In this document: positions 1,752 to 64,000 of the stretch, piece after piece | Numbering within the stretch: the stretch's first letter is position 1 | Layout: every line of letters begins with the position of its first letter | DNA from: Phytophthora colocasiae | Lineage: Eukaryota > Oomycota > Peronosporomycetes > Peronosporales > Peronosporaceae | Assembly: GCA_018806915.1 (NCBI GenBank) | Contig: JAGKQI010000028.1 | Span: 558,001 to 622,000 of the forward strand | Reading direction: 5' to 3' | Length of the DNA: 64,000 bases | The notes under the pieces: generated by a model | What the model saw: the letters and a program-made list of their open reading frames with translations, nothing else | Database searches by the model: none | What the model was told of the DNA's origin: nothing | Position numbers and translations under genes: made by a program

Positions 1752-2963
1752 GCCAGTAGAGTCCGTCGATCAGGTCCGCGGAAGCAACGATCTTCTTCGA
1801 CGACTTGCGCGCAATGTGCATCTCGGAGCCGTCAAACACCACCTTGAAATCTCCACCTCGGTTGATCTGAGGCACAGACAGCAGGTTCTTGTTCATACTC
1901 GGCACGTAGAGAGCATCTTCGATTCGGACGTCACGCACACTCCGGTTGGGCAGAATCACTTGTTGTACAACGGTACCAACTCCCAAAATCTTGGCCGTTT
2001 GACCGTTGGCAACTGTGAGTTCGCCTTCGTCGCGCAAGTTGATGTCGATGAATTTGGACTTGTCGTTGCAAATGTGGTGGGTTGCGCCACTGTCGATCGC
2101 CCATGAGCCTTGAAACTTCTTGCCCGACGACACTCCACACGCTGTCGACATGGAGACCGCGAACGCGATGTAGTCGTCTTCGTCGTCGCACCACTCAACG
2201 TTGCTGGCACCGCGACCACCTCGGCCGCGTCTCCTCGATTTTCTTCTTTCTGCTTGGTCCAGCACTTGTCGATCAGGTGCCCCAATTTTCCGCAGTAGTC
2301 ACACCGGCGAGTTTGACGCTCGGCGTTGAAGGCCTTCGCTGCTTCCTCAATTTTCACCGCCGCAGTCTTCTCGCCTTGTCGCTTGATATGCTCATTCGTG
2401 AGCACCTTCACCACATCTTGCGTCCGCAGCTCTGCATTGCTCATCTCCATGTTGAGCACGACGTTCTCGTAGCTTTTGGGCAGACTGCGCAGCAAGCAGA
2501 TCGCCACATCCTCGTCCTCCATCTTGGCGCCGATACTGCTAAGCTTCGCGCTGATGTTGAGGACCTCGTTGCAATGGTGAAGGATGTTTCCGCCTTCTGC
2601 CATCTCCATGCTGAAGAGCTGACGCTTGAGATAGATGCGTCCAGCCTTTTGCGATCCACCGTAAAGGGTACGCAAGCGCGCCCACGCGACCCAGGCTTCC
2701 TCGTAGTCGTCGACCACATGATGGTAGTCCGCGTCCATGTGGAGGAGCATCAGACCGAAGGCGACGTTGCTCGACTTGACATACTCGTCCTTGGCCCTGG
2801 AGTCCGTGAACGTAGGCGTCGTCTTGCGGTTCACCACATTCCACACCGACTTGGTCAGGAACACGCCACGCATGTAACGGTTCCACGTGGCGTAGTTCTC
2901 GCCGTTGAACTTGTGGATGGAGATCTTGGTATCTTGGACAGATGACATCCTGCTCGGGCTCAT
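1752..2963 (-). pseudogene. Copia-F unit 1 gag-protease
   Basis: Starts with ATG at 2963, which lies inside the primer-binding site. Gag (about 245 residues) has a UBN2/copia-type capsid region ([12 protein letters not shown] near residue 24) and a CCHC knuckle [14 protein letters not shown] near residue 220. A 4-base deletion near 2231, relative to the array-2 unit at 46047, shifts the frame, so the protease with its active-site motif [12 protein letters not shown] continues in another frame from about 2265. The protease domain itself is intact up to DGLYW, then runs into the inverted segment. Confidence 0.85.
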
Positions 2964-2967
2964 AACC
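2956..2967 (-). promoter_or_regulatory. Copia-F primer-binding site (half-tRNA type)
   Basis: Minus-strand GGTTATGAGCCC immediately follows the LTR end. It is complementary to the anticodon stem-loop region of eukaryotic initiator tRNA-Met rather than to a tRNA 3' end, as known for Drosophila copia. The ATG inside it is the gag start. The same 12-mer follows the LTRs of D and E. Confidence 0.8.
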
Positions 2968-3249
2968 TGAAGAAGGTCGTCACAGAGGTTGTCTTGCGAG
3001 GGGAGGACTGCCGAAGCTTGAGGCGAGGAGGCCGAGGCGAGGGAAGTCGCTTGAGGGGTAGAATGGAAATTCAGAAGTGATTGATTGATACGAGCTTACA
3101 CTGTCTTCTCTACCTGGTCTGCATCCAATCATTTGGTGCATCCAATCACCAATATTCTGTACTCGTCCAATCATCCTACTCGTCTAATCATCGGTGGCGT
3201 AAACATCTTACTGTAATCATTGCGGGATCGTATTGGATCACCTGCAACA
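2968..3249 (-). repeat. Copia-F LTR, array 1 second copy
   Basis: 282 bp, TGTTGCAGG...CTTCTTCA on the minus strand. It serves as 5' LTR of unit 1 and 3' LTR of unit 2. Confidence 0.9.
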
Positions 3250-6216: not shown

Positions 6217-6916
6217 AGTTGGTCGAGGGGCCAATTGAAGAACTTGGCCACAGCGATGATCGTTAGCAGCGTGACGTACTTGACCACCGGCGAAAACGTC
6301 TCGGTGTAGTCGATCCCATACTTCTGCACAAATCCTTTCGCAACGAGTCGAGCCTTGTACTTCTCGATGGACCCGTCGGCTTTACGCTTGATCTTGAACA
6401 CCCACTTGGTTCCGACTGCGCGTTGGTTGTTTGGTAATTTGGCGCCACGAAACACTCCACGAAGTCGCATCGACTTGAGTTCTGCTCGGATCGCCTTGCG
6501 CCAGTGGACTTGGTCTTCACCGCTCACAGCATCTTGGAACGTCTTCGGCTCGGCGCTGTCACTCGTCTCAACTGCATTCGCACTCGCACACCAGTACATC
6601 GGCTGAGTCGAGTCATCATCATCATTGTCTTTAGATTTGGCTTCTTGATGGTCGGAGTCCGGAGCGCTTGCTTCTTCTAATCCAGTACTGCGACGCGGTC
6701 GACGAACATGTTCACGATCCTCGGCGTTAGAACGAGCCTTGCGTTTCCCCGCCTGCTTGAATTCACGCGTTCCATGGTCGTTCGAAATCTCGAGGTCTTC
6801 AAGGATATCCGCAGCATCTTCGACATCTTCATCATCATCAACAACATTGGCTTCGTCGAAGGTTGATTCGTCGAATGTGACATCGCGAGAAATCACTACC
6901 TGGCCCGCCTCGATGT
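6217..6916 (-). pseudogene. Copia-F unit 3 integrase tail and RT fragment (no displaced piece)
   Basis: The RT segment is continuous here: FSPVVKYV runs straight into [19 protein letters not shown] before the LTR, so this unit shows the arrangement before the 92-bp integrase piece was inserted at TGACG. On the 5' side the integrase is deleted from the pre-integrase region to IEAGQVVIS (junction near 6917). It is therefore a simpler internal-deletion derivative than the other units. Confidence 0.85.
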
Positions 6917-8248
6917 TACCATTCCGCTTAAAACCATCTTCCGTAGCACGTCGTTTGGAGCATGACCCATCCGCGCATGAAGATCGACACTGTTGATCGA
7001 GGCCGTAGTCGTCGAATTGGCAGAACCCTTACTCGTAGCCAGTAGAGTCCGTCGATCAGGTCCGCGGAAGCAACGATCTTCTTCGACGACTTGCGCGCAA
7101 TGTGCATCTCGGAGCCGTCAAACACCACCTTGAAATCTCCACCTCGGTTGATCTGAGGCACAGACAGCAGGTTCTTGTTCATACTCGGCACGTAGAGAGC
7201 ATCTTCGATTCGGACGTCACGCACACTCCGGTTGGGCAGAATCACTTGTTGTACAACGGTACCAACTCCCAAAATCTTGGCCGTTTGACCGTTGGCAACT
7301 GTGAGTTCGCCTTCGTCGCGCAAGTTGATGTCGATGAATTTGGACTTGTCGTTGCAAATGTGGTGGGTTGCGCCACTGTCGATCGCCCATGAGCCTTGAA
7401 ACTTCTTGCCCGACGACACTCCACACGCTGTCGACATGGAGACCGCGAACGCGATGTAGTCGTCTTCGTCGTCGCACCACTCAACGTTGCTGGCACCGCG
7501 ACCACCTCGGCCGCGTCTCCTCGATTTTCTTCTTTCTGCTTGGTCCAGCACTTGTCGATCAGGTGCCCCAATTTTCCGCAGTAGTCACACCGGCGAGTTT
7601 GACGCTCGGCGTTGAAGGCCTTCGCTGCTTCCTCGATTTTCACCGCCGCAGTCTTCTCGCCTTGTCGCTTGATATGCTCATTCGTGAGCACCTTCACCAC
7701 ATCTTGCGTCCGCAGCTCTGCATTGCTCATCTCCATGTTGAGCACGACGTTCTCGTAGCTTTTGGGCAGACTGCGCAGCAAGCAGATCGCCACATCCTCG
7801 TCCTCCATCTTGGCGCCGATACTGCTAAGCTTCGCGCTGATGTTGAGGACCTCGTTGCAATGGTGAAGGATGTTTCCGCCTTCTGCCATCTCCATGCTGA
7901 AGAGCTGACGCTTGAGATAGATGCGTCCAGCCTTTGCGATCCACCGTAAAGGGTACGCAAGCGCGCCCACGCGACCCAGGCTTCCTCGTAGTCGTCGACC
8001 ACATGATGGTAGTCCGCGTCCATGTGGAGGAGCATCAGACCGAAGGCGACGTTGCTCGACTTGACATACTCGTCCTTGGCCCTGGAGTCCGTGAACGTAG
8101 GCGTCGTCTTGCGGTTCACCACATTCCACACCGACTTGGTCAGGAACACGCCACGCATGTAACGGTTCCACGTGGCGTAGTTCTCGCCGTTGAACTTGTG
8201 GATGGAGATCTTGGTATCTTGGACAGATGACATCCTGCTCGGGCTCAT
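6917..8248 (-). pseudogene. Copia-F unit 3 gag, protease and native pre-integrase stub
   Basis: Gag starts at 8248; a one-base loss in a T run near 7934 shifts the frame, and the common 4-base loss before protease is also present. After the protease (DSGATHHIC) the minus strand continues into VDLHARMGHAPNDVLRKM in native orientation (about 6930-7038), the region that is inverted in the other units. Four bases (CCCA) are missing at the junction compared with the inverted copies, giving a frameshift after DGLYWL. Confidence 0.85.
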
Positions 8249-28280: not shown

Positions 28281-31200
28281 GCAGCACGTCGTGGCCCGAA
28301 GATGTGAAGCTGGATGTGCTCGGCCGGTATCTGTCTGAAAAGGCAGGCCGCCATTTCAATAGTCAAGTGGATGCTTGGTATTTGGAGAACCCCATGCTAT
28401 GGTACGCCATGGACCAGATGAATGCTGCCTTCGGGCCCAAAGTGTCCAAGTCCCAAGCGCTACGATACTTCACGGCCAAAAAGGACAACTCCGTCACGTG
28501 GAATGACCACCTGCTCTTTCTGATGGCTGTTAGCGATGCAATCGGAGGCGCTAATGACTTAGTGCTAGAGAATATCGCGAAGTATGCAAGCCCGAGAGAG
28601 GACCTGCAGGCAGTACTCCTCGCCAGGTACAATCCACACAGGACGGATCATTTGCGCCAGGCTGAAGAGCTGGTGCACTTCGCGCAATTGAGTGACCACG
28701 GGAGCGCCAAAGGTACCGCGAAAGCGGCGGTCGCAGCAATTGGGGACAAGAGACGCACGAGTGCAGTGGGTGAAGGGGACAGCCGAAAGTGCTACAGGTG
28801 TGGCCAAGTCGGTCACCTGAAGCGCAACTGTCCCAGTGAAAGAAAACCAGCGTTTCTGCTGGCGGTAGCGGAAAGTACTGAGGGATCGGATTCCTGGATT
28901 CTTGATAGCGGGTCCAGTCGCCATCTCGTGCGCCAGCCAGAGCAGCTCACGGACGCGATAGCTATCGATGAAACCTGCCTCCTCCCGAATGGCGACAGCC
29001 TGCGGCTTCGGCTAAAGGGAACTGCACGCTTCACGGTAGTGGTGGACGGTGAGCCGCGGGTTATGGAACTCCGTGACGTGTACCACGCGGACAAATTGCC
29101 ATGGAACATCATTTCGTATGGAAAACTGGACGAACGTGGCTACGAGCTGCGCTACAGGAACGGGGTTCGAGCGCTTGTGCGGCGTAGCGATGGGTTTAAG
29201 GTGTTTGACGTGCACAAGGACTCAAACAACGTATTAACGGTCACGGTGGAGAACGGAGCTTCCAGCACCACTGCGGCTGCTGAGTCAAGGATCGTAGCAG
29301 CTATCTCAGAAGCGCTGGCGGTGCCACTTGATGATGTACAGGAGGGAAGTCTCTACCACTTTCATGTGCGGCTCGGTCATCTGGCCTACGATACTATCGA
29401 GAAGATAGCGGAAGATGCTGGCAGCGGTATCAGGCTCACGGACAAAGAGCGACCGGTCTGTGTGGCGTGTGCACAGGGGAAGCAGCGCCGCAATAAGCAG
29501 TCGGTCAAGGACACAGGCGCTAATGCGCCGATCGATCGTGTAGGCGGGGTGATCTGCAGCGACATTAAAGGTCCGATCACTCCGCGTGACTGGCGGGGGA
29601 ACAGGTATATGATCAACTTTGTTGATCACAAGTCCAGCTACTGCCGCGTGTTCTTGGCCAAGAGCAAGGACAGCGCCACTAAACAATTCGAGCACTTCCT
29701 CGCATATTTCGAGAAGCGATTCAACTGCAGCGTGCACTGCTTGCGGACGGATGGTGGAGGCGAGTACAAGGTGGTAGACCCATTCTGTAAGAGTGCGGGT
29801 GTGCGACGTCAGGTGTCCGAAGCTGACAATCAAGCCTCCAATGGAAAAGCAGAGCGGATGCACCAGACGATCATGGGCATGGTCCGCTCCATGATTTTCG
29901 GTTCGGATCTACCGTTGTGTTTCTGGGGGGACGCAGCGGAATACGCGGCTTACATCCTAAATCGCAGCCCGACCCGGAGCAATCCCGGTCGCGCGTCTCC
30001 GCTAGAACTGCTAATCGGACAGAAACCCACGGTGACCGACATTGTTGTTTTTGGGTCGTCATGCACAGCGATTCGAGACAAGAAACCGAGCGCCCTAGCT
30101 CCCCGTGCGGAGGAAGCTGTCATTATTGGCAAGAATGACGAGACCAAGGGATATCGAGTGCTGTTCAAGAAGGACCGTGTTGTTCGTACTACACAACACG
30201 TTAGGAACGTGCAAACCCTGAGCCCGGCCACAAACGCCCAACTCAAGCGTCAGTTGGATGCCGGGCGAGCCAACGGATCCAACGGATCCGGCGACACTAT
30301 CGAGCAACATGACGATCAAGCGAGAGCGAATGACAGCCTTTATCGGCTTGACGGACATGAAGATCGGAAGGAGACACCATGTTTACCATCGTCTACGTCA
30401 AGGACCCGAAAGACGTCGCGTGGTAAGCGCGGGGGACGAGGTAACACAAAGGTCACCGAATCCGTGCCGGCGAAGGGAACGCACTCCATGGTGACTCGAA
30501 ACGGTGGTTCTAAGACACCACCACGCGAGGTCATCGGCACTGTGTACCATGAAGATCCCAAGAACTGGAACGCCGCAATGAAGTCTGAGGAAAGCGACAA
30601 GTGGCGTGCAGCAGCTGAGTCTGAACTGGCATCTCTAGAAGATAACGACACCTGGGAGCTGGTGGTACGGACGAGCGAAGTGCGGCCGCTGCACACGAAA
30701 TGGGTCTTCAAGACGAAGAAGGACGCTAACGGCAACGTGGAGCGATACAAAGCTCGCTTGGTAGCTTGTGGCAACGAACAAGTACTGGGAGTCAACTACA
30801 CGATGACATTCTCAGCTGTCATGGACGCTACTAACACCAAAGTGATTCTAGTATTGTCGATAATCTGGCGCGTCCCGGCCAGACACGGCGATGTACCAAA
30901 TGCCTACGTGAAGGCCGAGACCGAGCCCGACATGGACATCCATTTGCATGTCCCGCAAGGCATGGAGGTGAACGAGAGTAAAATGCACGAAGCAGGTGTT
31001 GAAGATCAAACCAGAATGGTGTTGCGACTCAAGCGCAGTCTGTACGGGCTGAAACAGGCCGGACGTCTCTGGGCGAAGACGCTGCACGACCACCTCATCG
31101 ATGGTGGCTTTACGCAGTGCGTGACAGACACGTGCATGTATTTCAAGAGGGACCAGCTTGGCGTGACAGTCATCGGCGTCTACGTAGATGACCTACTAGT

Positions 31201-31564
31201 CACGGGGACAAATGCTAAGCGTGTGGATGAGCTCTTCGATCTGTTGTGTCCCCTCCAAGTTAAAGACTTGGGCGTCGTGAGTAAGTTCCTCGGCATGCGT
31301 GTGCAGAGCATCGGCAAAGACGAGTACAGTCTGGACCAAGAAACGACAATCGACGAACTCCTGGACAAGTTTGGGCTGAAGGATGCGCACGCGGTGGCGA
31401 CGCCAATAGGCCCTGAGAACGAGAGCGAGACCGTTGGTGGTGGTACACCACTACCACGTGAGCGCAAGCGTCAATGCATCTGTGAAGTCATTCCAGTCGA
31501 TTGTGGGATCGTTGTTGTGGCTGGCGCGGTGCACGCGCCCGGACATTGCGTACGCTGTGCATAA
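28202..31564 (+). CDS. Copia E1 Gag-protease-integrase-RT polyprotein
   Basis: 1120-residue frame. Capsid remainder, knuckle CYRCGQVGHLKRNC near 197, protease WILDSGSSRHLVRQ near 234 (DSG), pre-integrase finger HVRLGHLAYDTI...CVACAQGK near 396, integrase D454 (SDIKGP), D517 (LRTDGGGEY) and E551 (NGKAERMHQ), a basic Ser-rich linker, then RT from TWELVVRTSEVRPLHTKWVF to YVDDLLVTGT near 994. The frame is lost at about 31462 by a two-base deletion (AG) compared with E2, so the last ~35 codons are spurious and RNase H continues in the frame of 31434. The E2 copy has the RT-RNase H junction intact. Confidence 0.88.
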   Translation: MYKGLGAGFASWGRRFLRQVRIAEELSSTSWPEDVKLDVLGRYLSEKAGRHFNSQVDAWYLENPMLWYAMDQMNAAFGPKVSKSQALRYFTAKKDNSVTWNDHLLFLMAVSDAIGGANDLVLENIAKYASPREDLQAVLLARYNPHRTDHLRQAEELVHFAQLSDHGSAKGTAKAAVAAIGDKRRTSAVGEGDSRKCYRCGQVGHLKRNCPSERKPAFLLAVAESTEGSDSWILDSGSSRHLVRQPEQLTDAIAIDETCLLPNGDSLRLRLKGTARFTVVVDGEPRVMELRDVYHADKLPWNIISYGKLDERGYELRYRNGVRALVRRSDGFKVFDVHKDSNNVLTVTVENGASSTTAAAESRIVAAISEALAVPLDDVQEGSLYHFHVRLGHLAYDTIEKIAEDAGSGIRLTDKERPVCVACAQGKQRRNKQSVKDTGANAPIDRVGGVICSDIKGPITPRDWRGNRYMINFVDHKSSYCRVFLAKSKDSATKQFEHFLAYFEKRFNCSVHCLRTDGGGEYKVVDPFCKSAGVRRQVSEADNQASNGKAERMHQTIMGMVRSMIFGSDLPLCFWGDAAEYAAYILNRSPTRSNPGRASPLELLIGQKPTVTDIVVFGSSCTAIRDKKPSALAPRAEEAVIIGKNDETKGYRVLFKKDRVVRTTQHVRNVQTLSPATNAQLKRQLDAGRANGSNGSGDTIEQHDDQARANDSLYRLDGHEDRKETPCLPSSTSRTRKTSRGKRGGRGNTKVTESVPAKGTHSMVTRNGGSKTPPREVIGTVYHEDPKNWNAAMKSEESDKWRAAAESELASLEDNDTWELVVRTSEVRPLHTKWVFKTKKDANGNVERYKARLVACGNEQVLGVNYTMTFSAVMDATNTKVILVLSIIWRVPARHGDVPNAYVKAETEPDMDIHLHVPQGMEVNESKMHEAGVEDQTRMVLRLKRSLYGLKQAGRLWAKTLHDHLIDGGFTQCVTDTCMYFKRDQLGVTVIGVYVDDLLVTGTNAKRVDELFDLLCPLQVKDLGVVSKFLGMRVQSIGKDEYSLDQETTIDELLDKFGLKDAHAVATPIGPENESETVGGGTPLPRERKRQCICEVIPVDCGIVVVAGAVHAPGHCVRCA

Positions 31565-32225
31565 GGCGACTCGGCGCACACATGCACCGACCAAGGCTGA
31601 CTGGGTGCTGGTGAAGCGCATTGCAAGGTACCTGAAGGGCACCAAAGGTGCTGCGATGCGACTTGGTGGCGTGGGTGATAACATTGGCGAAGCGCTGAGA
31701 GTGGACAGCTACAGCGATGCCGATTATGCGGGTGACAAGAACGACCGGAAGTCGATCAGCGGAGTGATCACGAGGGTGAATGGAGCTACCGTCGGATGGC
31801 TCTGCAAAAAACAGGCGGCAGTGGCGCTGTCTACGATGGAGGCGGAATTCGTTGCCGCGGCGCACGCCGCGCAGGAGCTAATGGGCCTCCGTGAACTCTT
31901 CCGCGAGCTCAACATTCCTGTCGTTGAACCCATGGAGATGAAGATGAACAACCAAGCGGCGATAAAGCAAGTGCAGAACGAGGTGAGTTCGGGCAGAGCA
32001 AAGCACATCGATGTGAAATACAAGTTTACCAAGGACTTAGCAGCGAAGGGCGTCATCGTACCAGTGTACGTTCCTACAGGCGAGATGGCTGCGGATTTAC
32101 TCACCAAGTCATTTGCTGCTCCGAGACTGCGCGAGCTGTCCGAGATCTGCGGTTTGGATATGCGCGAGCCTAGCACTACTAGTGCAAGCCGTCGCACTAG
32201 TCGCGGCTTGAAGGCGTCGCCGTGA
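31434..32225 (+). pseudogene. Copia E1 RNase H (frameshifted from RT)
   Basis: From about 31462 this frame carries the copia RT end and RNase H: SIVGSLLWLARCTRPDIAYA, YSDADYAGDKNDRKSISG, STMEAEFVAAAHAAQELMG, NNQAAIKQV and a C-terminal tail AADLLTKSFAAPRLREL. It is intact apart from the upstream two-base loss. The stop at 32225 is 9 bases before the LTR; the intervening purine-rich GGAAGGAG serves as polypurine tract. Confidence 0.85.
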
Positions 32226-32234
32226 TGGAAGGAG

Positions 32235-32496
32235 TGTTGAAAGCCGGGTCAAGGTATCCAGCTTTCCGGGATCACGCCGCCGTGCTGTGCAAGTTGCGAG
32301 CATACTGAAGGCGTCCCACAGCTGGGACCGACGGAAGATGTGTAGGCTGGGCGAGCTGGGTACGCTTGCATCGCGTCCAGGGCGCTCGTTGTACATGCAG
32401 TCCTAGATACGAAGCGTTAACTGTCAATCACATCTCACTTCCAAACATTCCTCGTCAAGCACAAGTCCTCACCTCAAGAACGACCTCACTCTAACA
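32235..32496 (+). repeat. Copia E LTR 2 (shared middle LTR)
   Basis: 262 bp, same sequence as LTR 1 and LTR 3; 3' LTR of E1 and 5' LTR of E2. Confidence 0.93.
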
Positions 32497-32500
32497 GGTT

Positions 32501-33064
32501 ATGAGCCCAACAACGGAGAAGACTGATGCCACGCAAGCCCAACCGCCGATCAACATCCGCGGCGACGACGACGCAGTCAGCGTCAGTTCGACTGCGGCCG
32601 ATGGGATGTCGAAGCTGCTGGAGATGGTGGCTGAGCTCAAGGGGGATGTAGGTGCTCGCCTTCAAAGGCTTGAGAGCCGCCTCGTGGACGATGATCAAGC
32701 GTCGGTTGCGTCATCGGGAAGCAGCACCTTCCGTGCGTACGCGGAGGCGCGCTCCGGAGTTGGCCGTCGCATGACGATCGCGTCGCTTGAGGACGAAGTC
32801 ATGCACGCCTCCGCGCGACAAAACGCTGCTGGAGGTGCTGGTGCGGCCGGCGCTGGTGGGCAGCAAGCCCAAGCGCAAGGTCAAGGTTTTGCTGCGATTG
32901 GTGGCGGATATACGCCAGGAATGATGGCGCCACGACTAAGTGTTCGCGATCTTCGCGTGGCCATCGAGCCGTTTACTGGGAAGAATTGTACAAGGGGCTG
33001 GGTGCGGGTTTTGCTTCCTGGGGCCGACGCTTTCTGCGACAGGTCCGCATTGCTGAAGAACTGA
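32501..33064 (+). pseudogene. Copia E2 gag N-terminal part
   Basis: Matches the E1 gag start, including the frame discrepancy before ELYKGLG (near 32982). ATG lies within the primer site. Confidence 0.75.
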
Positions 33065-33972
33065 GCAGCACGTCGTGGCCCGAAGATGTGAAGCTGGATG
33101 TGCTCGGCCGGTATCTGTCTGAAAAAGCAGGCCGCCATTTCAATAGTCAAGTGGATGCTTGGTATTTGGAGAACCCCATGCTATGGTACGCCATGGACCA
33201 GATGAATGCTGCCTTCGGGCCCAAAGTGTCCAAGTCCCAAGCGCTACGATACTTCACGGCCAAAAAGGACAACTCCGTCACGTGGAATGACCACCTGCTC
33301 TTTCTGATGGCTGTTAGCGATGCAATCGGAGACGCTAATGACTTAGTGCTAGAGAATATCGCGAAGTATGCAAGCCCGAGAGAGGACCTGCAGGCAGTAC
33401 TCCTCGCCAGGTACAATCCACACAGGATGGATCATTTGCGCCAGGCTGAAGAGCTGGTGCACTTCGCGCAATTGAGTGACCACGGGAGCGCCAAAGGTAC
33501 CGCGAAAGCGGCGGTCGCAGCAATTGGGGACAAGAGACGCACGAGTGCAGTGGGTGAAGGGGACAGCCGAAAGTGCTACAGGTGTGGCCAAGTCGGTCAC
33601 CTGAAGCGCAACTGTCCCAGTGAAAGAAAACCAGCGTTTCTGCTGGCGGTAGCGGAAAGTACTGAGGGATCGGATTCCTGGATTCTTGATAGCGGGTCCA
33701 GTCGCCATCTCGTGCGCCAGCCAGAGCAGCTCACGGACGCGATAGCTATCGATGAAACCTGCCTCCTCCCGAATGGCGATCAGCCTGCGGCTTCGGCTAA
33801 AGGAACTGCACGCTTCACGGTAGTGGTGGACGGTGAGCCGCGGGTTATGGAACTCCGTGACGTGTACCACGCGGACAAATTGCCATGGAACATCATTTCG
33901 TATGGAAAACTGGACGAACGTGGCTACGAGCTGCGCTACAGGAACGGGGTTCGAGCGGCTTGTGCGGCGTAG
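32986..33972 (+). pseudogene. Copia E2 gag-protease segment
   Basis: Capsid, CCHC knuckle and DSGSS protease as in E1. Compensating one-base indels alter a short stretch (LPNGD to KGTARF, 33780-33802), and an extra base at about 33957 ends the frame. The changes are single-base and mostly in short runs. Confidence 0.8.
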
Positions 33973-34104
33973 CGATGGGTTTAAGGTGTTTGACGTGCAC
34001 AAGGACTCAAACAACGTATTAACGGTCACGGTGGAGAACGGAGCTTCAGCACCACTGCGGCTGCTGAGTCAAGGATCGTAGCAGCTATCTCAGAAGCGCT
34101 GGCG

Positions 34105-34395
34105 GTGCCACTTGATGATGTACAGGAGGGAAGTCTCTACCACTTTCATGTGCGGCTCGGTCATCTGGCCTACGATACTATCGAGAAGATAGCGGAAGAT
34201 GCTGGCAGCGGTATCAGGCTCACGGACAAAGAGCGACCGGTCTGTGTGGCGTGTGCACAGGGGAAGCAGCGCCGCAATAAGCAGTCGGTCAAGGACACAG
34301 GCGCTAATGCGCCGATCGATCGTGTAGGCGGGGTGATCTGCAGCGACATTAAAGGTCCGATCACTCCGCGTGACTGGCGGGGAACAGGTATATGA
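34105..34395 (+). pseudogene. Copia E2 pre-integrase and integrase start
   Basis: HVRLGHLAYDTI, CVACAQGK and the first integrase aspartate region (SDIKGPITPRDWRG). It ends at a one-base loss in a G run (34379-34383) where E1 reads on. Upstream, a lost C near 34047 breaks the link to 33972. Confidence 0.8.
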
Positions 34396-34787
34396 TCAAC
34401 TTTGTTGATCACAAGTCCAGCTACTGCCGCGTGTTCTTGGCCAAGAGCAAGGACAGCGCCACTAAACAATTCGAGCACTTCCTCGCATATTTCGAGAAGC
34501 GATTCAACTACAGCGTGCACTGCTTGCGGACGGATGGTGGAGGCGAGTACAAGGTGGTAGACCCATTCTGTAAGAGTGCGGGTGTGCGACGTCAGGTGTC
34601 CGAAGCTGACAATCAAGCCTCCAATGGAAAAGCAGAGCGGATGCACCAGACGATCATGGGCATGGTCCGCTCCATGATTTTCGGTTCGGATCTACCGTTG
34701 TGTTTCTGGGGGGACGCAGCGGAATACGCGGCTTACATCCTAAATCGCAGCCCGACCGGAGCAATCCCGGTCGCGCGTCTCCGCTAG
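34392..34787 (+). pseudogene. Copia E2 integrase core
   Basis: MINFVDHKSSYCRVFLAKS to NRSPT: the second aspartate (LRTDGGGEY) and glutamate (NGKAERMHQ) are present. A lost C near 34757 shifts the frame into the RT-containing frame that starts at 34700. Confidence 0.8.
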
Positions 34788-37009
34788 AACTGCTAACCGG
34801 ACAGAAACCCACGGTGACCGACATTGTTGTTTTTGGGTCGTCATGCACAGCGATTCGAGACAAGAAACCGAGCGCCCTAGCTCCCCGTGCGGAGGAAGCT
34901 GTCATTATTGGCAAGAATGACGAGACCAAGGGATATCGAGTGCTGTTCAAGAAGGACCGTGTTGTTCGTACTACACAACACGTTAGGAACGTGCAAACCC
35001 TGAGCCCGGCCACAAACGCCCAACTCAAGCGTCAGTTGGATGCCGGGCGAGCCAATGGATCCAACGGATCCGGCGACACTATCGAGCAACATGACGATCA
35101 AGCGAGAGCGAATGACAGCCTTTATCGGCTTGACGGACATGAAGATCGGAAGGAGACACCATGTTTACCATCGTCTACGTCAAGGACCCGAAAGACGTCG
35201 CGTGGTAAGCGCGGGGGACGAGGTAACACAAAGGTCACCGAATCCGTGCCGGCGAAGGGAACGCACTCCATGGTGACTCGAAACGGTGGTTCTAATACAC
35301 CACCACGCGAGGTCATCGGCACTGTGTACCATGAAGATCCCAAGAACTGGAACGCCGCAATGAAGTCTGAGGAAAGCGACAAGTGGCGTGCAGCAGCTGA
35401 GTCTGAACTGGCATCTCTAGAAGATAACGACACCTGGGAGCTGGTGGTACGGACGAGCGAAGTGCGGCCGCTGCACACGAAATGGGTCTTCAAGACGAAG
35501 AAGGACGCTAACGGCAACGTGGAGCGATACAAAGCTCGCTTGGTAGCTTGTGGCAACGAACAAGTACTGGGAGTCAACTACACGATGACATTCTCAGCTG
35601 TCATGGACGCTACTAACACCAAAGTGATTCTAGTATTGTCGATAATCTGGCGCGTCCCGGCCAGACACGGCGATGTACCAAATGCCTACGTGAAGGCCGA
35701 GACCGAGCCCGACATGGACATCCATTTGCATGTCCCGCAAGGCATGGAGGTGAACGAGAGTAAAATGCACGAAGCAGGTGTTGAAGATCAAACCAGAATG
35801 GTGTTGCGACTCAAGCGCAGTCTGTACGGGCTGAAACAGGCCGGACGTCTCTGGGCGAAGACGCTGCACGACCACCTCATCGATGGTGGCTTTACGCAGT
35901 GCGTGACAGACACGTGCATGTATTTCAAGAGGGACCAGCTTGGCGTGACAGTCATCGGCGTCTACGTAGATGACCTACTAGTCACGGGGACAAATGCTAA
36001 GCGTGTGGATGAGCTCTTCGATCTGTTGTGTCCCCTCCAAGTTAAAGACTTGGGCGTCGTGAGTAAGTTCCTCGGCATGCGTGTGCAGAGCATCGGCAAA
36101 GACGAGTACAGTCTGGACCAAGAAACGACAATCGACGAACTCCTGGACAAGTTTGGGCTGAAGGATGCGCACGCGGTGGCGACGCCAATAGGCCCTGAGA
36201 ACGAGAGCGAGACCGTTGGTGGTGGTACACCACTACCACGTGAGAGCGCAAGCGTCAATGCATCTGTGAAGTCATTCCAGTCGATTGTGGGATCGTTGTT
36301 GTGGCTGGCGCGGTGCACGCGCCCGGACATTGCGTACGCTGTGCATAAGGCGACTCGGCGCACACATGCACCGACCAAGGCTGACTGGGTGCTGGTGAAG
36401 CGCATTGCAAGGTACCTGAAGGGCACCAAAGGTGCTGCGATGCGACTTGGTGGCGTGGGTGATAACATTGGCGAAGCGCTGAGAGTGGACAGCTACAGCG
36501 ATGCCGATTATGCGGGTGACAAGAACGACCGGAAGTCGATCAGCGGAGTGATCACGAGGGTGAATGGAGCTACCGTCGGATGGCTCTGCAAAAAACAGGC
36601 GGCAGTGGCGCTGTCTACGATGGAGGCGGAATTCGTTGCCGCGGCGCACGCCGCGCAGGAGCTAATGGGCCTCCGTGAACTCTTCCGCGAGCTCAACATT
36701 CCTGTCGTTGAACCCATGGAGATGAAGATGAACAACCAAGCGGCGATAAAGCAAGTGCAGAACGAGGTGAGTTCGGGCAGAGCAAAGCACATCGATGTGA
36801 AATACAAGTTTACCAAGGACTTAGCAGCGAAGGGCGTCATCGTACCAGTGTACGTTCCTACAGGCGAGATGGCTGCGGATTTACTCACCAAGTCATTTGC
36901 TGCTCCGAGACTGCGCGAGCTGTCCGAGATCTGCGGTTTGGATATGCGCGAGCCTAGCACTACTAGTGCAAGCCGTCGCACTAGTCGCGGCTTGAAGGCG
37001 TCGCCGTGA
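34700..37009 (+). CDS. Copia E2 integrase C-terminus, RT and RNase H
   Basis: From about 34760 this 769-residue frame covers the integrase C-terminal domain (ELLTGQKPTVTDIVVFGSSC), the basic linker, the complete RT with YVDDLLVTGT and the complete RNase H (YSDADYAGDKN, STMEAEFVAAAH, NNQAAIKQV). Unlike E1 the RT-RNase H junction is unbroken (PRESASVNASVKSFQSIVG), so between them the two units show what an intact E reads like. The first ~20 residues are out-of-frame sequence. Confidence 0.88.
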   Translation: MFLGGRSGIRGLHPKSQPDRSNPGRASPLELLTGQKPTVTDIVVFGSSCTAIRDKKPSALAPRAEEAVIIGKNDETKGYRVLFKKDRVVRTTQHVRNVQTLSPATNAQLKRQLDAGRANGSNGSGDTIEQHDDQARANDSLYRLDGHEDRKETPCLPSSTSRTRKTSRGKRGGRGNTKVTESVPAKGTHSMVTRNGGSNTPPREVIGTVYHEDPKNWNAAMKSEESDKWRAAAESELASLEDNDTWELVVRTSEVRPLHTKWVFKTKKDANGNVERYKARLVACGNEQVLGVNYTMTFSAVMDATNTKVILVLSIIWRVPARHGDVPNAYVKAETEPDMDIHLHVPQGMEVNESKMHEAGVEDQTRMVLRLKRSLYGLKQAGRLWAKTLHDHLIDGGFTQCVTDTCMYFKRDQLGVTVIGVYVDDLLVTGTNAKRVDELFDLLCPLQVKDLGVVSKFLGMRVQSIGKDEYSLDQETTIDELLDKFGLKDAHAVATPIGPENESETVGGGTPLPRESASVNASVKSFQSIVGSLLWLARCTRPDIAYAVHKATRRTHAPTKADWVLVKRIARYLKGTKGAAMRLGGVGDNIGEALRVDSYSDADYAGDKNDRKSISGVITRVNGATVGWLCKKQAAVALSTMEAEFVAAAHAAQELMGLRELFRELNIPVVEPMEMKMNNQAAIKQVQNEVSSGRAKHIDVKYKFTKDLAAKGVIVPVYVPTGEMAADLLTKSFAAPRLRELSEICGLDMREPSTTSASRRTSRGLKASP

Positions 37010-60898: not shown

Positions 60899-61338
60899 GC
60901 GTTTGCCATCTCTAAGCTCGAAGGGCGAGCACGAGAATGGGCTTTGACGTCTGGGACGTCGGTGGAAGCGGCCTTCCCCACATGGGGCGAGCTAAAGGCC
61001 AAGCTCACGCAAGTGTTTGCTCCGCCTAACCAAGCGTATCGCGTGCGGTCACGCTTCCTTGCTTGTCGCCAGGGCAAGAAGGATCTGGCGGACTATGTCC
61101 AAGAGCTGCGCACGCTCATTGCTGGCATGGCTGCCGACCCTCTACCTGAGGTGGTCGCCGTGACCGTCTTCATGGAAGGCTGGCGAGCTGGCGTTACAGT
61201 ACGGAGGCGTTCCGTCAAAAACCTCGTAACTTCGAAGACGCTGTCAGCGTGGCATTGAATGCCGAGCACAACTTTAAGTTGTCGAGGGTCGGTGCTATCA
61301 GCACAGGGTCCGGTGGACCCGAGGCCATGGACCTCAGC
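60899..61338 (+). pseudogene. gypsy G gag fragment
   Basis: Capsid of a typical oomycete gypsy Gag: AFAISKLEGRAREWALTSG, FPTWGELKAKLTQVFAPPNQ, SRFLACRQGKKDLADYVQEL, MEGWRAGV, then after a frameshift near 61200 FEDAVSVALNAEHNFKLSRV and PEAMDLS. The upstream part was separated by Copia-F array 1, the downstream part by element H at 61338. It is the outermost layer seen in the window. Confidence 0.82.
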
Positions 61339-61799
61339 TGTAACGGGGTTACACGTACAAGTGGTAGTACCACTTGTAACTCTAACAGTTAGGATAACTG
61401 TTAGAGGTTGGAAATGGGCCTCAGACCTTGGTGTGCTGTACACACCAAAGGATACATGGGCGAACCACATTATTGGGTGGTTCGTGTGCATTTGTGCATA
61501 TTATTGGTAGAAAGTAACGGATTTCTACCAATCACTGAGCAGAGTTTCTGCCAACCACACGTTGGCAGACCCTTTAGAAATAGATAACAAACAGTTTTAG
61601 GAGGTCCATAATTGGCTTATGCCAAATTCAATAACAGTTCTCATTTTACGGTATTTTTGCAGTTTAATTTAGTTATATTTGATTTAATTATACTTATTTA
61701 AATAAGTATACTTAAATTAAGTCTATTCTAATTGCACGCTTCCTCATACACGTAAGCGCACGTGTACGCCACCTAATAGGTCTAAGCAGACCCATTACA
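61339..61799 (+). repeat. gypsy H 5' LTR (461 bp)
   Basis: TGTAACGGGG...CCCATTACA with terminal TGTAA/TTACA inverted repeat. The first half is a chain of hairpins; the second (about 61640-61730) is very AT-rich. Confidence 0.8.
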
Positions 61800-61801
61800 C
61801 C

Positions 61802-61819
61802 TGGTAGCACTTTGTAGTC
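61802..61819 (+). promoter_or_regulatory. gypsy H candidate primer-binding site
   Basis: TGGTAGCACTTTGTAGTC, two bases after the LTR end TTACA. Confidence 0.6.
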
Positions 61820-61848
61820 CGTCCCACAACCGACTGCTGTTCGTTCGT

Positions 61849-62835
61849 ATGGAGTCATACGAACGCGGGGTAGAGAACTCCCCAATGGATGAGGGATCCG
61901 CTGGGACCCCTCAAATGTCCGTGACGCGCACGGACTGCGCCCACCTGTCTGATCCAGAGTGGGAAGCTCTCCAAAGACTTTCACAAGTCATTGGAGAGGC
62001 AGCAGTAGCGACGATGCTTTGCACGCTATCGCCGACAGAGCAACACGGTGTTGCTCTGGGGTACATTGTTAAGGAGCAACGAGATGTTGCTGCCTCGGTG
62101 GCTTCCCCTAAGCCACGCGTGGAGTCGTTGAAACTCCACGTGAGTACCTACACGGGGAAGGAGGACGAGACCCTCCTTCGTTGGCTTGTCGAACTTGACA
62201 CAGCCGTTGCGGCTCGACGTATCGTCGATCCGATGTCGAAGGTCGCGTTCGCCATGTCATGTCTTGGCGGACGTGCGAGGAGTTGGGCCTATGGGCGCCG
62301 ACTCTCGGATCCTACGTGCTTCAGCACGTATGAGGTGTTCAAGGAGGAACTCAAACTTGCATTTGAGCCTCCGAAGAACGAGTTCAGATCGAGAGCGGAG
62401 TTTCTCGATCTGCAGCAGGGCAAGGATGATGTTCACACCTTTGCCCAGCGTGCTCGATACTTGGTATCGAACATAGTGGCCAACCCGATCGACGAGGCGA
62501 CCAAGGTCGTCACGTTCATGAAGGGACTAAGAGATGGTCCCGTCAAGACGTATCTCTTCCGAGAGTATCCGAATACTCTCGAGGAAGCGATCAGCCTTGC
62601 AATGCAAGAGGAGTTTAGCCGGCGTCAAGCTAAACTCCATGCGAACGCGCCGAAGCCGGCGCGTCCTGTTGTGAAGACGGGAGGTCCGGAGCCTATGGAC
62701 CTCTCGAGTGCTACGACTGCTGGTCAACAGCAGCGTAGGAACAGCAAGGTTCGATGTTACAAGTGTAGTAACATCGGTCACTATGCACGCAAGTGCACAG
62801 CGGGCGGGCGTTCAAAAAACGCCAAGGACCAGTAG
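61849..62835 (+). CDS. gypsy H Gag
   Basis: 328 residues, intact. N-terminal region with DPEWEALQRLSQVIGEAAVA, capsid (LKLHVSTYTGKEDETLLRWL, SKVAFAMSCLGGRARSWAYG, EFRSRAEFLDLQQGKDDVHT, KGLRDGPVKTYLFREYP), MDLSS motif, and a C-terminal CCHC knuckle CYKCSNIGHYARKC. This is the usual oomycete gypsy Gag layout. The start codon lies in the arm of a 10-bp hairpin (61842-61865). Gag ends at 62835 within the frameshift stem-loop; pol is expected in the -1 frame. It would form the virus-like particle and bind RNA. Confidence 0.88.
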   Translation: MESYERGVENSPMDEGSAGTPQMSVTRTDCAHLSDPEWEALQRLSQVIGEAAVATMLCTLSPTEQHGVALGYIVKEQRDVAASVASPKPRVESLKLHVSTYTGKEDETLLRWLVELDTAVAARRIVDPMSKVAFAMSCLGGRARSWAYGRRLSDPTCFSTYEVFKEELKLAFEPPKNEFRSRAEFLDLQQGKDDVHTFAQRARYLVSNIVANPIDEATKVVTFMKGLRDGPVKTYLFREYPNTLEEAISLAMQEEFSRRQAKLHANAPKPARPVVKTGGPEPMDLSSATTAGQQQRRNSKVRCYKCSNIGHYARKCTAGGRSKNAKDQ

Positions 62836-62855
62836 GCGTGGGGCGTCCTACTGGT
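62814..62855 (+). promoter_or_regulatory. gypsy H gag-pol -1 ribosomal frameshift signal
   Basis: Heptamer A AAA AAC (62814-62820) in the gag frame, a 7-base spacer, then a perfect 9-bp stem ACCAGTAGG/CCTACTGGT (62828-62836, 62847-62855) with a 10-base loop. The gag stop TAG (62833-62835) is inside the stem. The -1 frame reads on to RFLAVSCK, the usual lead into the Ty3 protease. Confidence 0.8.
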
Positions 62856-63428
62856 GATGCAGTCTCGCGTGTCGAGCTTGGACACGCGACGATGAGGACT
62901 GCTGCCCCCAGCAGAAGGTTTCTCGCTGTAAGCTGCAAGATGACAAGCCAAACCTTGTCATCCTGAACGTGATGTCGAAGAGAGTGAACTCTCTTCGTGC
63001 CCTAGTGGACTCGGGCGCGTCGAACAACTTTGTTCGACAGGGAAGTCTTCGAAGACTTGACTTCGAAGAGGCCGACACGCCTCGCGGCGTGTTGGAGGTG
63101 CGGTTGGCAACAGGTGCCACCGTGAGGACTGAGAAGCGCGTAGTCCGTGCGCGCTTCTCTTACAAACGAAGGACGTTTGTAGAAGATCTTATCGTCTTGG
63201 ATCTAGACGATAAGTTCGACTTGGTATTAGGCATGCCGTGGCTTGCACGGCATGACCCGGTGATCAACTGGGAGAAGCGTACGCTCGTACGCTTCAACAA
63301 CACATGCGCGACAGAGAGCGATGGCCCTGTCAGTGCTGCACATGCACCGGCCGGTGCATGTGGATCCCCAGTTGAGGCAGCAGCGGCCGCCGCTGCCTCC
63401 GATCGCCGCCGGCGACCATCAACGACTC
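62836..63428 (+). pseudogene. gypsy H protease region (interrupted)
   Basis: After the -1 frame ends near 62940 (one-base indel at SCK/DDKPNLVILNV) the protease continues: VMSKRVNSLRALVDSGASNN (active-site DSGA), VRLATGATVRTEKRV, FVEDLIVLDLDDKFDLVLGM, WLARHDPVINWEK. The frame runs to AAAAAASDRRRR and is cut at 63428 by an unrelated LTR. The open frame to 63604 beyond that point is incidental. Confidence 0.8.
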
Positions 63429-64000
63429 TGTGGTGGAGTGGATCCGCTGGAATGAGCAGGGATCCAACGTTCACACACGGCGCCCAGACACTGACTAACG
63501 GAGGGGGTACTCCAATAACCGTGGGGTTGCTGAGGCTCACCTTGTGTACCCGTCAGTGGGCGGGATGTGCTCTCTCAGGAACGGGAGAGTGTACACAGGT
63601 GTGAGGGCTTGAACGTCCTTGGCGAGGACTTGGGAGGTTGGACTTGCGTGGGTATTCCTGCACACAGGTCCTGGTTGGGGGGATCTTGGTCTTGGACTCG
63701 AAGATCTTGAGGATCCTTGGATCCGGGGTTGCCTTGGTGGGTGTGGGGTCCTTTTCCTTTCCTTTACTGTCTTGCTTGCCGCCTCCTGTAGCGGTTGGTC
63801 TTGAGGGTGTTGAGAGGTCGAGGGATCCTACGGTTAAGCAATCAACACCGTTGGATCCGGGGTCTTCACTAGCGTAAGGTAAGCCGGCCAAATCGGGGAT
63901 CCGGTCTTAGCTGTAGCTAGGTATGCGAAGAAACTTGCAGGAAGACTAAGGGGAGGCCAATACACTATCCTCTTCCCTTGTCTGAGGTCCTGAAGAAAAC
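63429..64000 (-). repeat. partial LTR of an element related to gypsy A
   Basis: Starts TGTGGTGGAGTGGATC and shares blocks with the A LTR (GCGCCCAGACAC, CTCACCTTGTGTACCCGTC, GGCCAATA near the end) but is clearly diverged. By analogy with A the element would be read on the minus strand. It continues past the window; no gene in this stretch. Confidence 0.65.

What the first reader, a model, noticed from the sequence alone, without database searches (positions are those of the whole stretch)
61339..63400. Gypsy H is saturated with perfect short hairpins in LTR and coding sequence
I count 28 inverted repeats with arms of 8-12 bp and loops of 0-10 bases in about 2.06 kb, plus one 13-bp stem with a single A-A mismatch (61967-61998). 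With random sequence one expects well under one such stem (about 9 loop sizes x 4^-8 per position x 2060 = 0.3). They continue through gag and protease, where they are built largely from codon choice: the conserved protease residues SNNFVR are encoded by a 9-bp stem (63019-63038). The pattern begins with the LTR and ends where another element interrupts H; neighbouring elements do not show it. Two explanations: selection for a structured genomic RNA (packaging, silencing evasion, dimerisation), or a mutational process that perfects imperfect palindromes, such as template switching by reverse transcriptase. I know of no description of this.
Basis: seen in the sequence. Interest (0 to 1): 0.92.

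Follow-up and report, generated by a model that had tools for sequence, protein, structure and literature searches.

The report
Retrotransposon saturated with selected hairpins
A jumping gene in what looks like a Phytophthora genome carries about a hundred short perfect hairpins along its length, even inside its protein genes, and the pattern of mutations among its copies shows that the folded hairpins are kept by selection.

Summary
Confirmed, and larger than reported. H (61339-63428, a truncated Ty3/Gypsy copy) holds 30 perfect stems (arm >=8, loop 0-10) against 0.28 in shuffles. Six other copies carry 100-111 stems per 8 kb, from LTR to 3' region. Codon-shuffled controls give 0.2 (gag) and 1.0 (pol) against 9 and 40. 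The rest of the window and eight other RT loci are at chance.

Across 60 copies, shared variants are rare in stem cores (0.70% of sites) against 3.67% outside stems, 6.5% in loops and 18% at complementary bases too close to the loop to pair; private mutations hit cores and background alike (13.0, 14.4%). Third codon positions agree (1.15 against 6.91%). Hairpin energies are unusually uniform. So folded hairpins are selected; neutral perfecting by template switching fits poorly. A sister family (61-66% aa) has its own smaller excess at other positions. Folding-energy excess is about 35%, above the 23.4% recorded maximum quoted for coronaviruses. G.U and A.C mismatches are equally common, so selection on the sense RNA alone is doubtful. 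Closest known kind: genome-scale ordered RNA structure. The benefit (shielding, compaction) is inferred.

The parts
61339..63428 (+). Element H: 5' part of a Ty3/Gypsy LTR retrotransposon, truncated at 63428
   Evidence: 98% identical to copy L009 over this range; 40 scored matches of 61339-62000 at 97-100% in the genome, of 711 candidates
61339..61799 (+). 5' LTR (TG...CA, 461 nt; 3' end inferred from TG/CA and a TGG-type primer site after it, not from an LTR-LTR alignment)
   Evidence: sequence; the same start recurs 7,863-7,804 bases downstream in 4 of 6 copies
61849..62835 (+). gag ORF, 328 aa, with CCHC zinc knuckle
   Evidence: ORF; PF03732, PF19259, PF00098
62969..63428 (+). protease part of pol (ORF 62969-63604 is read by the tool past the H boundary)
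   Evidence: ORF with DSGASNNFVR; RVP_2 PF08284 in the same region of copy L009
61356..61378 (.). stem, arm 11, loop 1
61380..61406 (.). stem, arm 12, loop 3
61428..61448 (.). stem, arm 8, loop 5
61461..61484 (.). stem, arm 8, loop 8
61503..61532 (.). stem, arm 11, loop 8
61547..61569 (.). stem, arm 9, loop 5
61689..61710 (.). stem, arm 11, loop 0, core of a 52-nt AT-rich imperfect palindrome 61674-61725
61842..61865 (.). stem, arm 10, loop 4
61967..61998 (.). imperfect stem, 13 pairs with one A-A mismatch, loop 4
62036..62058 (.). stem, arm 11, loop 1
62118..62140 (.). stem, arm 8, loop 7
62157..62179 (.). stem, arm 8, loop 7
62313..62330 (.). stem, arm 8, loop 2
62385..62412 (.). stem, arm 10, loop 8
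62560..62581 (.). stem, arm 9, loop 4
62610..62638 (.). stem, arm 10, loop 9
62645..62664 (.). stem, arm 8, loop 4
62752..62776 (.). stem, arm 9, loop 7
62828..62855 (.). stem, arm 9, loop 10
62865..62889 (.). stem, arm 9, loop 7
62939..62962 (.). stem, arm 9, loop 6
62976..62997 (.). stem, arm 10, loop 2
63019..63038 (.). stem, arm 9, loop 2, over the SNNFVR codons
63046..63069 (.). stem, arm 9, loop 6
63131..63159 (.). stem, arm 10, loop 9
63161..63181 (.). stem, arm 8, loop 5
63188..63214 (.). stem, arm 10, loop 7
63232..63254 (.). stem, arm 9, loop 5
63274..63295 (.). stem, arm 10, loop 2
63339..63362 (.). stem, arm 12, loop 0
63380..63396 (.). stem, arm 8, loop 1

Best explanation
H belongs to a Ty3/Gypsy lineage whose single-stranded nucleic acid is under selection to fold into a dense row of short local hairpins, about one per 72 bases, regardless of where exactly each hairpin sits. 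SHOWN here: the excess; that it is not codon usage or composition; that folded stem cores are conserved in the lineage that transposes while loops and sterically unpairable bases drift; that hairpin strength is held in a narrow range; that a sister family has its own hairpins at other places. INFERRED: the benefit. I think most likely a shielding (or shielding plus compaction) role like that proposed for genome-scale ordered RNA structure in RNA viruses: self-paired strands are poor templates and targets for host silencing and for antisense pairing. Because Watson-Crick perfection is equal on both strands, the shield would have to serve both polarities (sense and antisense transcripts or small RNAs, or the minus-strand cDNA), not the sense RNA alone. 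My odds: selection for folded hairpins 0.85; shielding against silencing or antisense pairing as the main reason about 0.35.
For: Excess: 30 against 0.28; whole copy L009 110 against 2.75 (mean of 4 shuffles), excess confined to loops of 0 to about 16 nt. Codon-shuffled controls, 200 each: gag 9 against 0.20, pol 40 against 0.96, maximum 4. Selection: in 60 copies, variants shared by 3 or more copies at 9 of 1,286 core sites (0.70%), 142 of 3,871 outside (3.67%), 21 of 324 loop sites (6.5%), 6 of 162 outermost pairs (3.7%), 11 of 60 complementary sites that would leave a loop under 3 nt (18.3%); singletons 13.0% in core and 14.4% outside; p = 2e-7; same with L014 or L011 as reference; at codon position 3, 3 of 261 against 63 of 912 (p = 0.0002 by sites, 0.003 against singletons). 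Energy: SD 2.58 against 3.90 kcal/mol for random perfect hairpins of the same lengths (Levene p = 3e-6); longer arms are AT-richer and have shorter loops (rho about -0.2 each), absent in shuffles. Sister family: 7, 6, 6, 6 stems per 2 kb against 0.2-0.35. Protein level: among Phytophthora-type relatives with two substitutions in a stem, real stems stay pairable more often than feasible but unused sites (pol 0.455 against 0.269, p = 0.0045; gag 0.548 against 0.272, p = 3e-5).
Against: No probing data and no test of function. No sense-strand preference: G.U 8, A.C 10, other 9 in near-perfect stems, so a pure RNA role is doubtful. Loops and steric sites also have more singletons (22-23%) than the background, so mutation or detection is not perfectly even. 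The protein-level test shows nothing with one substitution, nothing in relatives under 70% identity (0.129 against 0.126; 45 of 90 such relatives used), and its variants are not independent. Copies are 94-99% alike, so compensatory changes are few: 10 of 17 double-change cells restore pairing, 3 of them in one copy with possible misalignment, one a duplicate locus. The sister family is only weakly structured (energy excess 6-8%).
Confidence: 0.7

Rival explanations
1. Template switching or hairpin-arm conversion during reverse transcription continually perfects quasi-palindromes; the stems are a by-product of the element's polymerase and need no function.
For: Element-specific, Watson-Crick perfect on both strands and with tight loops, as expected from fold-back copying; the mechanism is documented for DNA replication (PMC8794818, abstract seen) and suggested for nematomorph mitochondrial palindromes (PMC6649704, discussion read). 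A few multi-base compensated stems in one copy (L034).
Against: Conversion would move changes into both arms, so cores should evolve about as fast as the rest; they evolve five times slower for shared variants, and none of the 26 shared arm variants listed has a matching shared partner change. Imperfect stems are in excess (27 against 2.2). Hairpin energies are evened out. In the two sister lineages 11 lineage-specific stems differ from the other lineage at the background rate (0.298 against 0.293), in both arms in 10 of 11 and with the usual share of third positions.
Confidence: 0.12
2. Selection acts on single-stranded or cruciform DNA (minus-strand cDNA in the particle, or the integrated or extrachromosomal DNA), for example to protect cDNA or control strand transfer.
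For: Watson-Crick perfection without G.U preference and equal folding on both strands, the antisense strand being if anything more structured than its composition predicts (43.5 against 34.8%); stems in U3, R/U5, gag, pol and 3' region alike.
Against: No known Ty3/Gypsy precedent that I saw; the equal mismatch counts are small numbers (8 and 10).
Confidence: 0.25
3. Many dispersed packaging or Gag-binding hairpins guide genome assembly into the particle.
For: Hairpins of narrow stability; a recurrent CCGGG tip in 7 stems.
Against: Spacing is random (CV 0.69 against 0.67, 95% range 0.56-0.82); 101 different tips in 110 stems; positions not kept between sister families (0 of 25 H stems intact in L080 or L081).
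Confidence: 0.15
4. Chance, composition, codon usage or an assembly artefact.
For: None found.
Against: Dinucleotide and codon shuffles; the same stems in copies on many contigs.
Confidence: 0.01

Closest known systems
[quoted passage not shown]
   Same: Folding-energy excess spread along the whole genome, including coding sequence, made by many consecutive stem-loops, with pairings poorly conserved in position between relatives (PMC7642675, abstract and passages; here).
   Different: In an LTR retrotransposon; about 35% excess on the sense strand by my method (350-nt windows, 6 dinucleotide shuffles, so only roughly comparable) against 15% in SARS-CoV-2 and 23.4% as the highest recorded value quoted there; stems are perfect Watson-Crick and symmetric between strands; persistence in an animal host does not apply.
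Coding palindromes of nematomorph mitochondrial genes (PMC6649704)
   Same: Perfect inverted repeats inside conserved protein genes, gained and lost between species, with bias against pairing third codon positions with each other (here 7 of 40 in pol, but 6 of 17 in the protease part).
   Different: There up to 284 bp and no excess of imperfect repeats (abstract and discussion read); here arms stop at 12-13 bp, there are about 110 per element, and imperfect stems are in excess.
Template-switch-made RNA hairpins (PMC8794818)
   Same: Offers a one-step route to perfect stems.
   Different: Predicts concerted change of arms; here arms are conserved and lineage-specific stems differ in both arms.
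Ordinary Ty3/Gypsy elements of the same genome
   Same: Same protein domains; eight other RT loci fetched, seven of them with recognisable similarity to H pol at 29-38%.
   Different: 3 stems in 36 kb against 3.9 expected from shuffles; energy excess -0.9 to -5.0% in the seven tested.

Membership tests
Ty3/Gypsy LTR retrotransposon | Gag with CCHC knuckle; protease, RT, RNase H, integrase in that order | tested here: met
   PF03732, PF00098, PF08284, PF00078, PF17917, PF17921, PF00665 in copies L009 and the window
Ty3/Gypsy LTR retrotransposon | Long terminal repeats | tested here: met
   LTR start recurs near the end of 4 of 6 8-kb stretches; the other two were not extended
Genome-scale ordered RNA structure | Folding-energy excess over shuffled controls along the genome, not only in UTRs | tested here: met
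   34.8% mean, lowest of 44 windows 18.5%
Genome-scale ordered RNA structure | Pairings poorly conserved in position between relatives | tested here: met
   0 of 25 H stems intact in L080 or L081, which have their own
Genome-scale ordered RNA structure | Structure is formed by and selected on the RNA genome | tested here: inconclusive
   no G.U over A.C preference, equal sense and antisense energies
Genome-scale ordered RNA structure | Reduced recognition by host defence | not testable with these tools
   no small-RNA or expression data here
Nematomorph-type coding palindromes | Long perfect repeats without an excess of imperfect ones | tested here: not met
   arms at most 13 bp; 27 one-mismatch stems against 2.2 expected
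Template-switch perfecting as sole cause | Arms change together, or one arm is rewritten from the other | tested here: not met
   no shared paired change among 26 shared arm variants; changes in both arms at background rate in 11 lineage-specific stems
Known structured RNA family | Rfam match | tested here: not met
   0 matches in the window at gathering scores

The most novel reading that the evidence does not exclude
A lineage of LTR retrotransposons has turned its whole genome, coding sequence included, into a position-free array of about a hundred perfect hairpins of tuned stability that work on both strands: a self-complementary armour against host small RNAs of both polarities (or for its single-stranded cDNA), paid for partly with amino-acid changes, and shared to varying degree by related families in the same genome and probably in other Phytophthora species.
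Probability: 0.35. Interest if true: 0.95.

Novelty: new variant of a known kind. Interest (0 to 1): 0.87.

Why it matters
If right, genome-wide ordered structure is not confined to RNA viruses but can be driven further in a retrotransposon, where hundreds of copies of known age allow selection and mutation to be told apart in the same sequence (private against shared variants). It gives a natural test case for what such structure is for, because related families in one genome range from strongly structured (H) through weakly structured (sister family) to unstructured, under the same host silencing machinery. It also warns that synonymous sites in mobile elements can be strongly constrained, which matters for dating copies.

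Tried and rejected
Chance and codon usage: rejected by shuffles. Regular spacing for packaging: random. A common loop motif: 101 tips in 110 stems; only CCGGG recurs, 7 times, mostly in the stretch between protease and RT. Rfam: nothing. Sense-RNA-only selection: not supported. My first protein-level null also gave a signal in distant relatives; it was inadequate, and the stricter control with feasible but unused sites removed that signal and kept the one in close relatives. Amino-acid cost: H stem codons depart from the residue of relatives under 70% identity more often than other codons at the 0.7 and 0.8 thresholds (0.163 against 0.090, p = 0.017; 0.132 against 0.060, p = 0.011) but not significantly at 0.9 (p = 0.18), and not against close relatives. 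The share of stem departures needed for pairing (13 of 19) has no control and is not used. Gag proteins are not more hairpin-feasible than shuffled ones (63 against 43-79 sites); pol is (293 against 168-215). DNA of relatives from other species: viral contigs and genome contigs gave none close (one locus at 30% in a record titled as a bacterial MAG, with 2 stems in 10 kb, chance). The first divergence comparison was biased because stems were defined on the reference; searches use only sites where the reference base is the commoner one.

Full report
OBSERVATION. Element H holds 30 non-overlapping perfect stems (arm >=8, loop 0-10) in 61339-63400; 100 dinucleotide shuffles give 0.28 on average and at most 2. 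The other 61,910 bases of the window hold 11, and shuffles of them give 6-11. H is the 5' end of a Ty3/Gypsy element: an LTR of 461 nt, gag with a zinc knuckle, and the protease; homology to other copies ends at 63428.

WHOLE ELEMENT. The genome has many copies: 40 scored matches of the first 662 bases at 97-100% identity, of 711 candidates. Six 8-kb stretches that begin at the LTR carry 100, 104, 107, 110, 111 and 111 stems. In L009 (7,912 nt from the LTR start) there are 110 against 2.75 (mean of four shuffles); arms peak at 9 bp and the excess is limited to loops of 0 to about 16 nt. Density per kb is 15 in the LTR, 9 in gag, 19 in the protease and linker, 13.5 in RT-integrase and 13 in the 3' part. 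Shuffling synonymous codons 200 times gives 0.20 stems in gag (observed 9) and 0.96, at most 4, in pol (observed 40).

NOT A GENOME-WIDE HABIT. Eight other RT loci from the same genome, seven with recognisable similarity (29-38%) to H pol, have 3 stems in 36 kb against 3.9 expected. Their folding-energy excess is -0.9 to -5.0% in the seven tested.

SELECTION ON FOLDED HAIRPINS. I compared 60 copies with L009, after dropping 7 duplicates of the same place from 67 rows, and counted only sites seen in at least 8 copies where the L009 base is the commoner. Variants private to one copy arise mostly after insertion; variants shared by three or more passed through live elements. Private variants fall on 13.0% of stem-core sites and 14.4% of sites outside stems. 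Shared variants fall on 9 of 1,286 core sites (0.70%), 142 of 3,871 outside (3.67%), 21 of 324 loop sites (6.5%), 6 of 162 outermost-pair sites (3.7%) and 11 of 60 sites that are complementary but would leave a loop under 3 nt (18.3%); core against outside p = 2e-7. L014 and L011 as references give the same (p = 3e-7, 8e-6). At codon position 3 the figures are 3 of 261 against 63 of 912; positions 1 and 2 go the same way but are not significant against singletons (similar classes). Constraint therefore follows the geometry of a folded hairpin rather than sequence symmetry. Loops and steric sites also show more private variants (22-23%), which I cannot fully explain.

TUNED STABILITY. The 110 hairpins have a mean RNA folding energy of -12.9 kcal/mol with SD 2.58; random perfect hairpins of the same arm and loop lengths give SD 3.90 (Levene p = 3e-6). 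Arm length falls with GC content (rho -0.30) and with loop length (rho -0.29); with the lower threshold of 6 the values are -0.21 and -0.20, against about 0 in shuffles.

WHICH STRAND. If the sense RNA alone were selected, G.U pairs should be tolerated and A.C not. The 27 stems with one internal mismatch (2.2 expected) have 8 G.U, 10 A.C and 9 others; native energies per 100 nt are -39.1 sense and -39.0 antisense against -27.5 shuffled. Shared single changes in arms are 12 G.U, 7 A.C and 7 transversions, a weak lean to G.U on small numbers. I read this as no demonstrated strand preference.

RELATIVES. A sister family found with a P. ramorum protein, 61-66% identical to H in RT-integrase, has 7, 6, 6 and 6 stems in four 2-kb pieces from two lineages, against 0.2-0.35. 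H has 25 stems in the same region; none is intact in L080 or L081, although pairing there (0.42-0.45) is above slid registers (0.25-0.34). One stem is shared by the two sister lineages with an A-T to G-C change on both sides. Eleven lineage-specific stems differ between lineages at the background rate (0.298 against 0.293), in both arms in ten of eleven, which does not look like one-step copying. In H copies, 10 of 17 double-change cells restore pairing; after removing a duplicate locus, one steric pair and three pairs in one copy where similar neighbouring stems may have shifted the alignment, four pairs remain.

OTHER SPECIES, PROTEINS ONLY. No DNA of relatives from other species was reachable. 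Among relatives at 75% or more in pol (27) and in gag (120), two substitutions within a stem leave it pairable by synonymous choice more often than at feasible but unused sites (0.455 against 0.269, p = 0.0045; 0.548 against 0.272, p = 3e-5); all variants together, pol p = 0.011 and gag p = 4e-7; one substitution shows no difference; relatives under 70% (45 of 90 used) show none. Variants are related, so p values are optimistic.

COMPARISON. The folding-energy excess is 34.8% sense and 43.5% antisense in 44 windows of 350 nt. For coronaviruses, PMC7642675 (abstract and passages) gives 15% for SARS-CoV-2 and 23.4% as the highest recorded, and says such structure is poorly conserved in position; my shuffling differs, so the comparison is rough. 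Nematomorph mitochondrial genes have far longer perfect coding repeats without excess imperfect ones, for which conversion was proposed (PMC6649704, abstract and discussion). Phytophthora makes 25/26-nt small RNAs mainly from transposable elements (PMC3804510, passages), and structured viral RNAs were found to be poorly recognised by innate sensors (PMC3950689, abstract); these make shielding plausible but are not evidence for it here.

VERDICT. A real, very strong and selected feature; best filed as working like genome-scale ordered structure, in a new kind of carrier and to a new degree, with the selected strand and the benefit still open.

Noticed in passing
window 29610-36985: The same three chance-level stems recur about 4,783 bases apart (29610/34393, 30176/34958, 32178/36962), so this stretch holds two copies of one sequence, tandem or adjacent.
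   Followed up: no
window 60899-61338: Just upstream of the H LTR lies a piece of another Gypsy gag (34-40% identical to H gag) without hairpin excess; H begins where it stops.
   Followed up: no
L009:6302-7648 and 6660-7937, minus strand: Two long open frames (448 and 425 aa, stop to stop) run antisense in the 3' part of copy L009; the first (its 447 codons before the stop) has no Pfam match.
   Followed up: partly
L009, about 2170-3015: Seven stems with the same TCCGGGA centre lie between protease and RT, the most variable stretch of the family.
   Followed up: partly
L080-L083: A sister Gypsy family with a weaker hairpin excess (6-7 stems per 2 kb), suggesting that the trait is graded within the group.
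   Followed up: yes
L071: A contig filed under a Phycisphaerae bacterium MAG encodes a Gypsy-type pol 30% identical to H, probably a eukaryotic contaminant.
   Followed up: no
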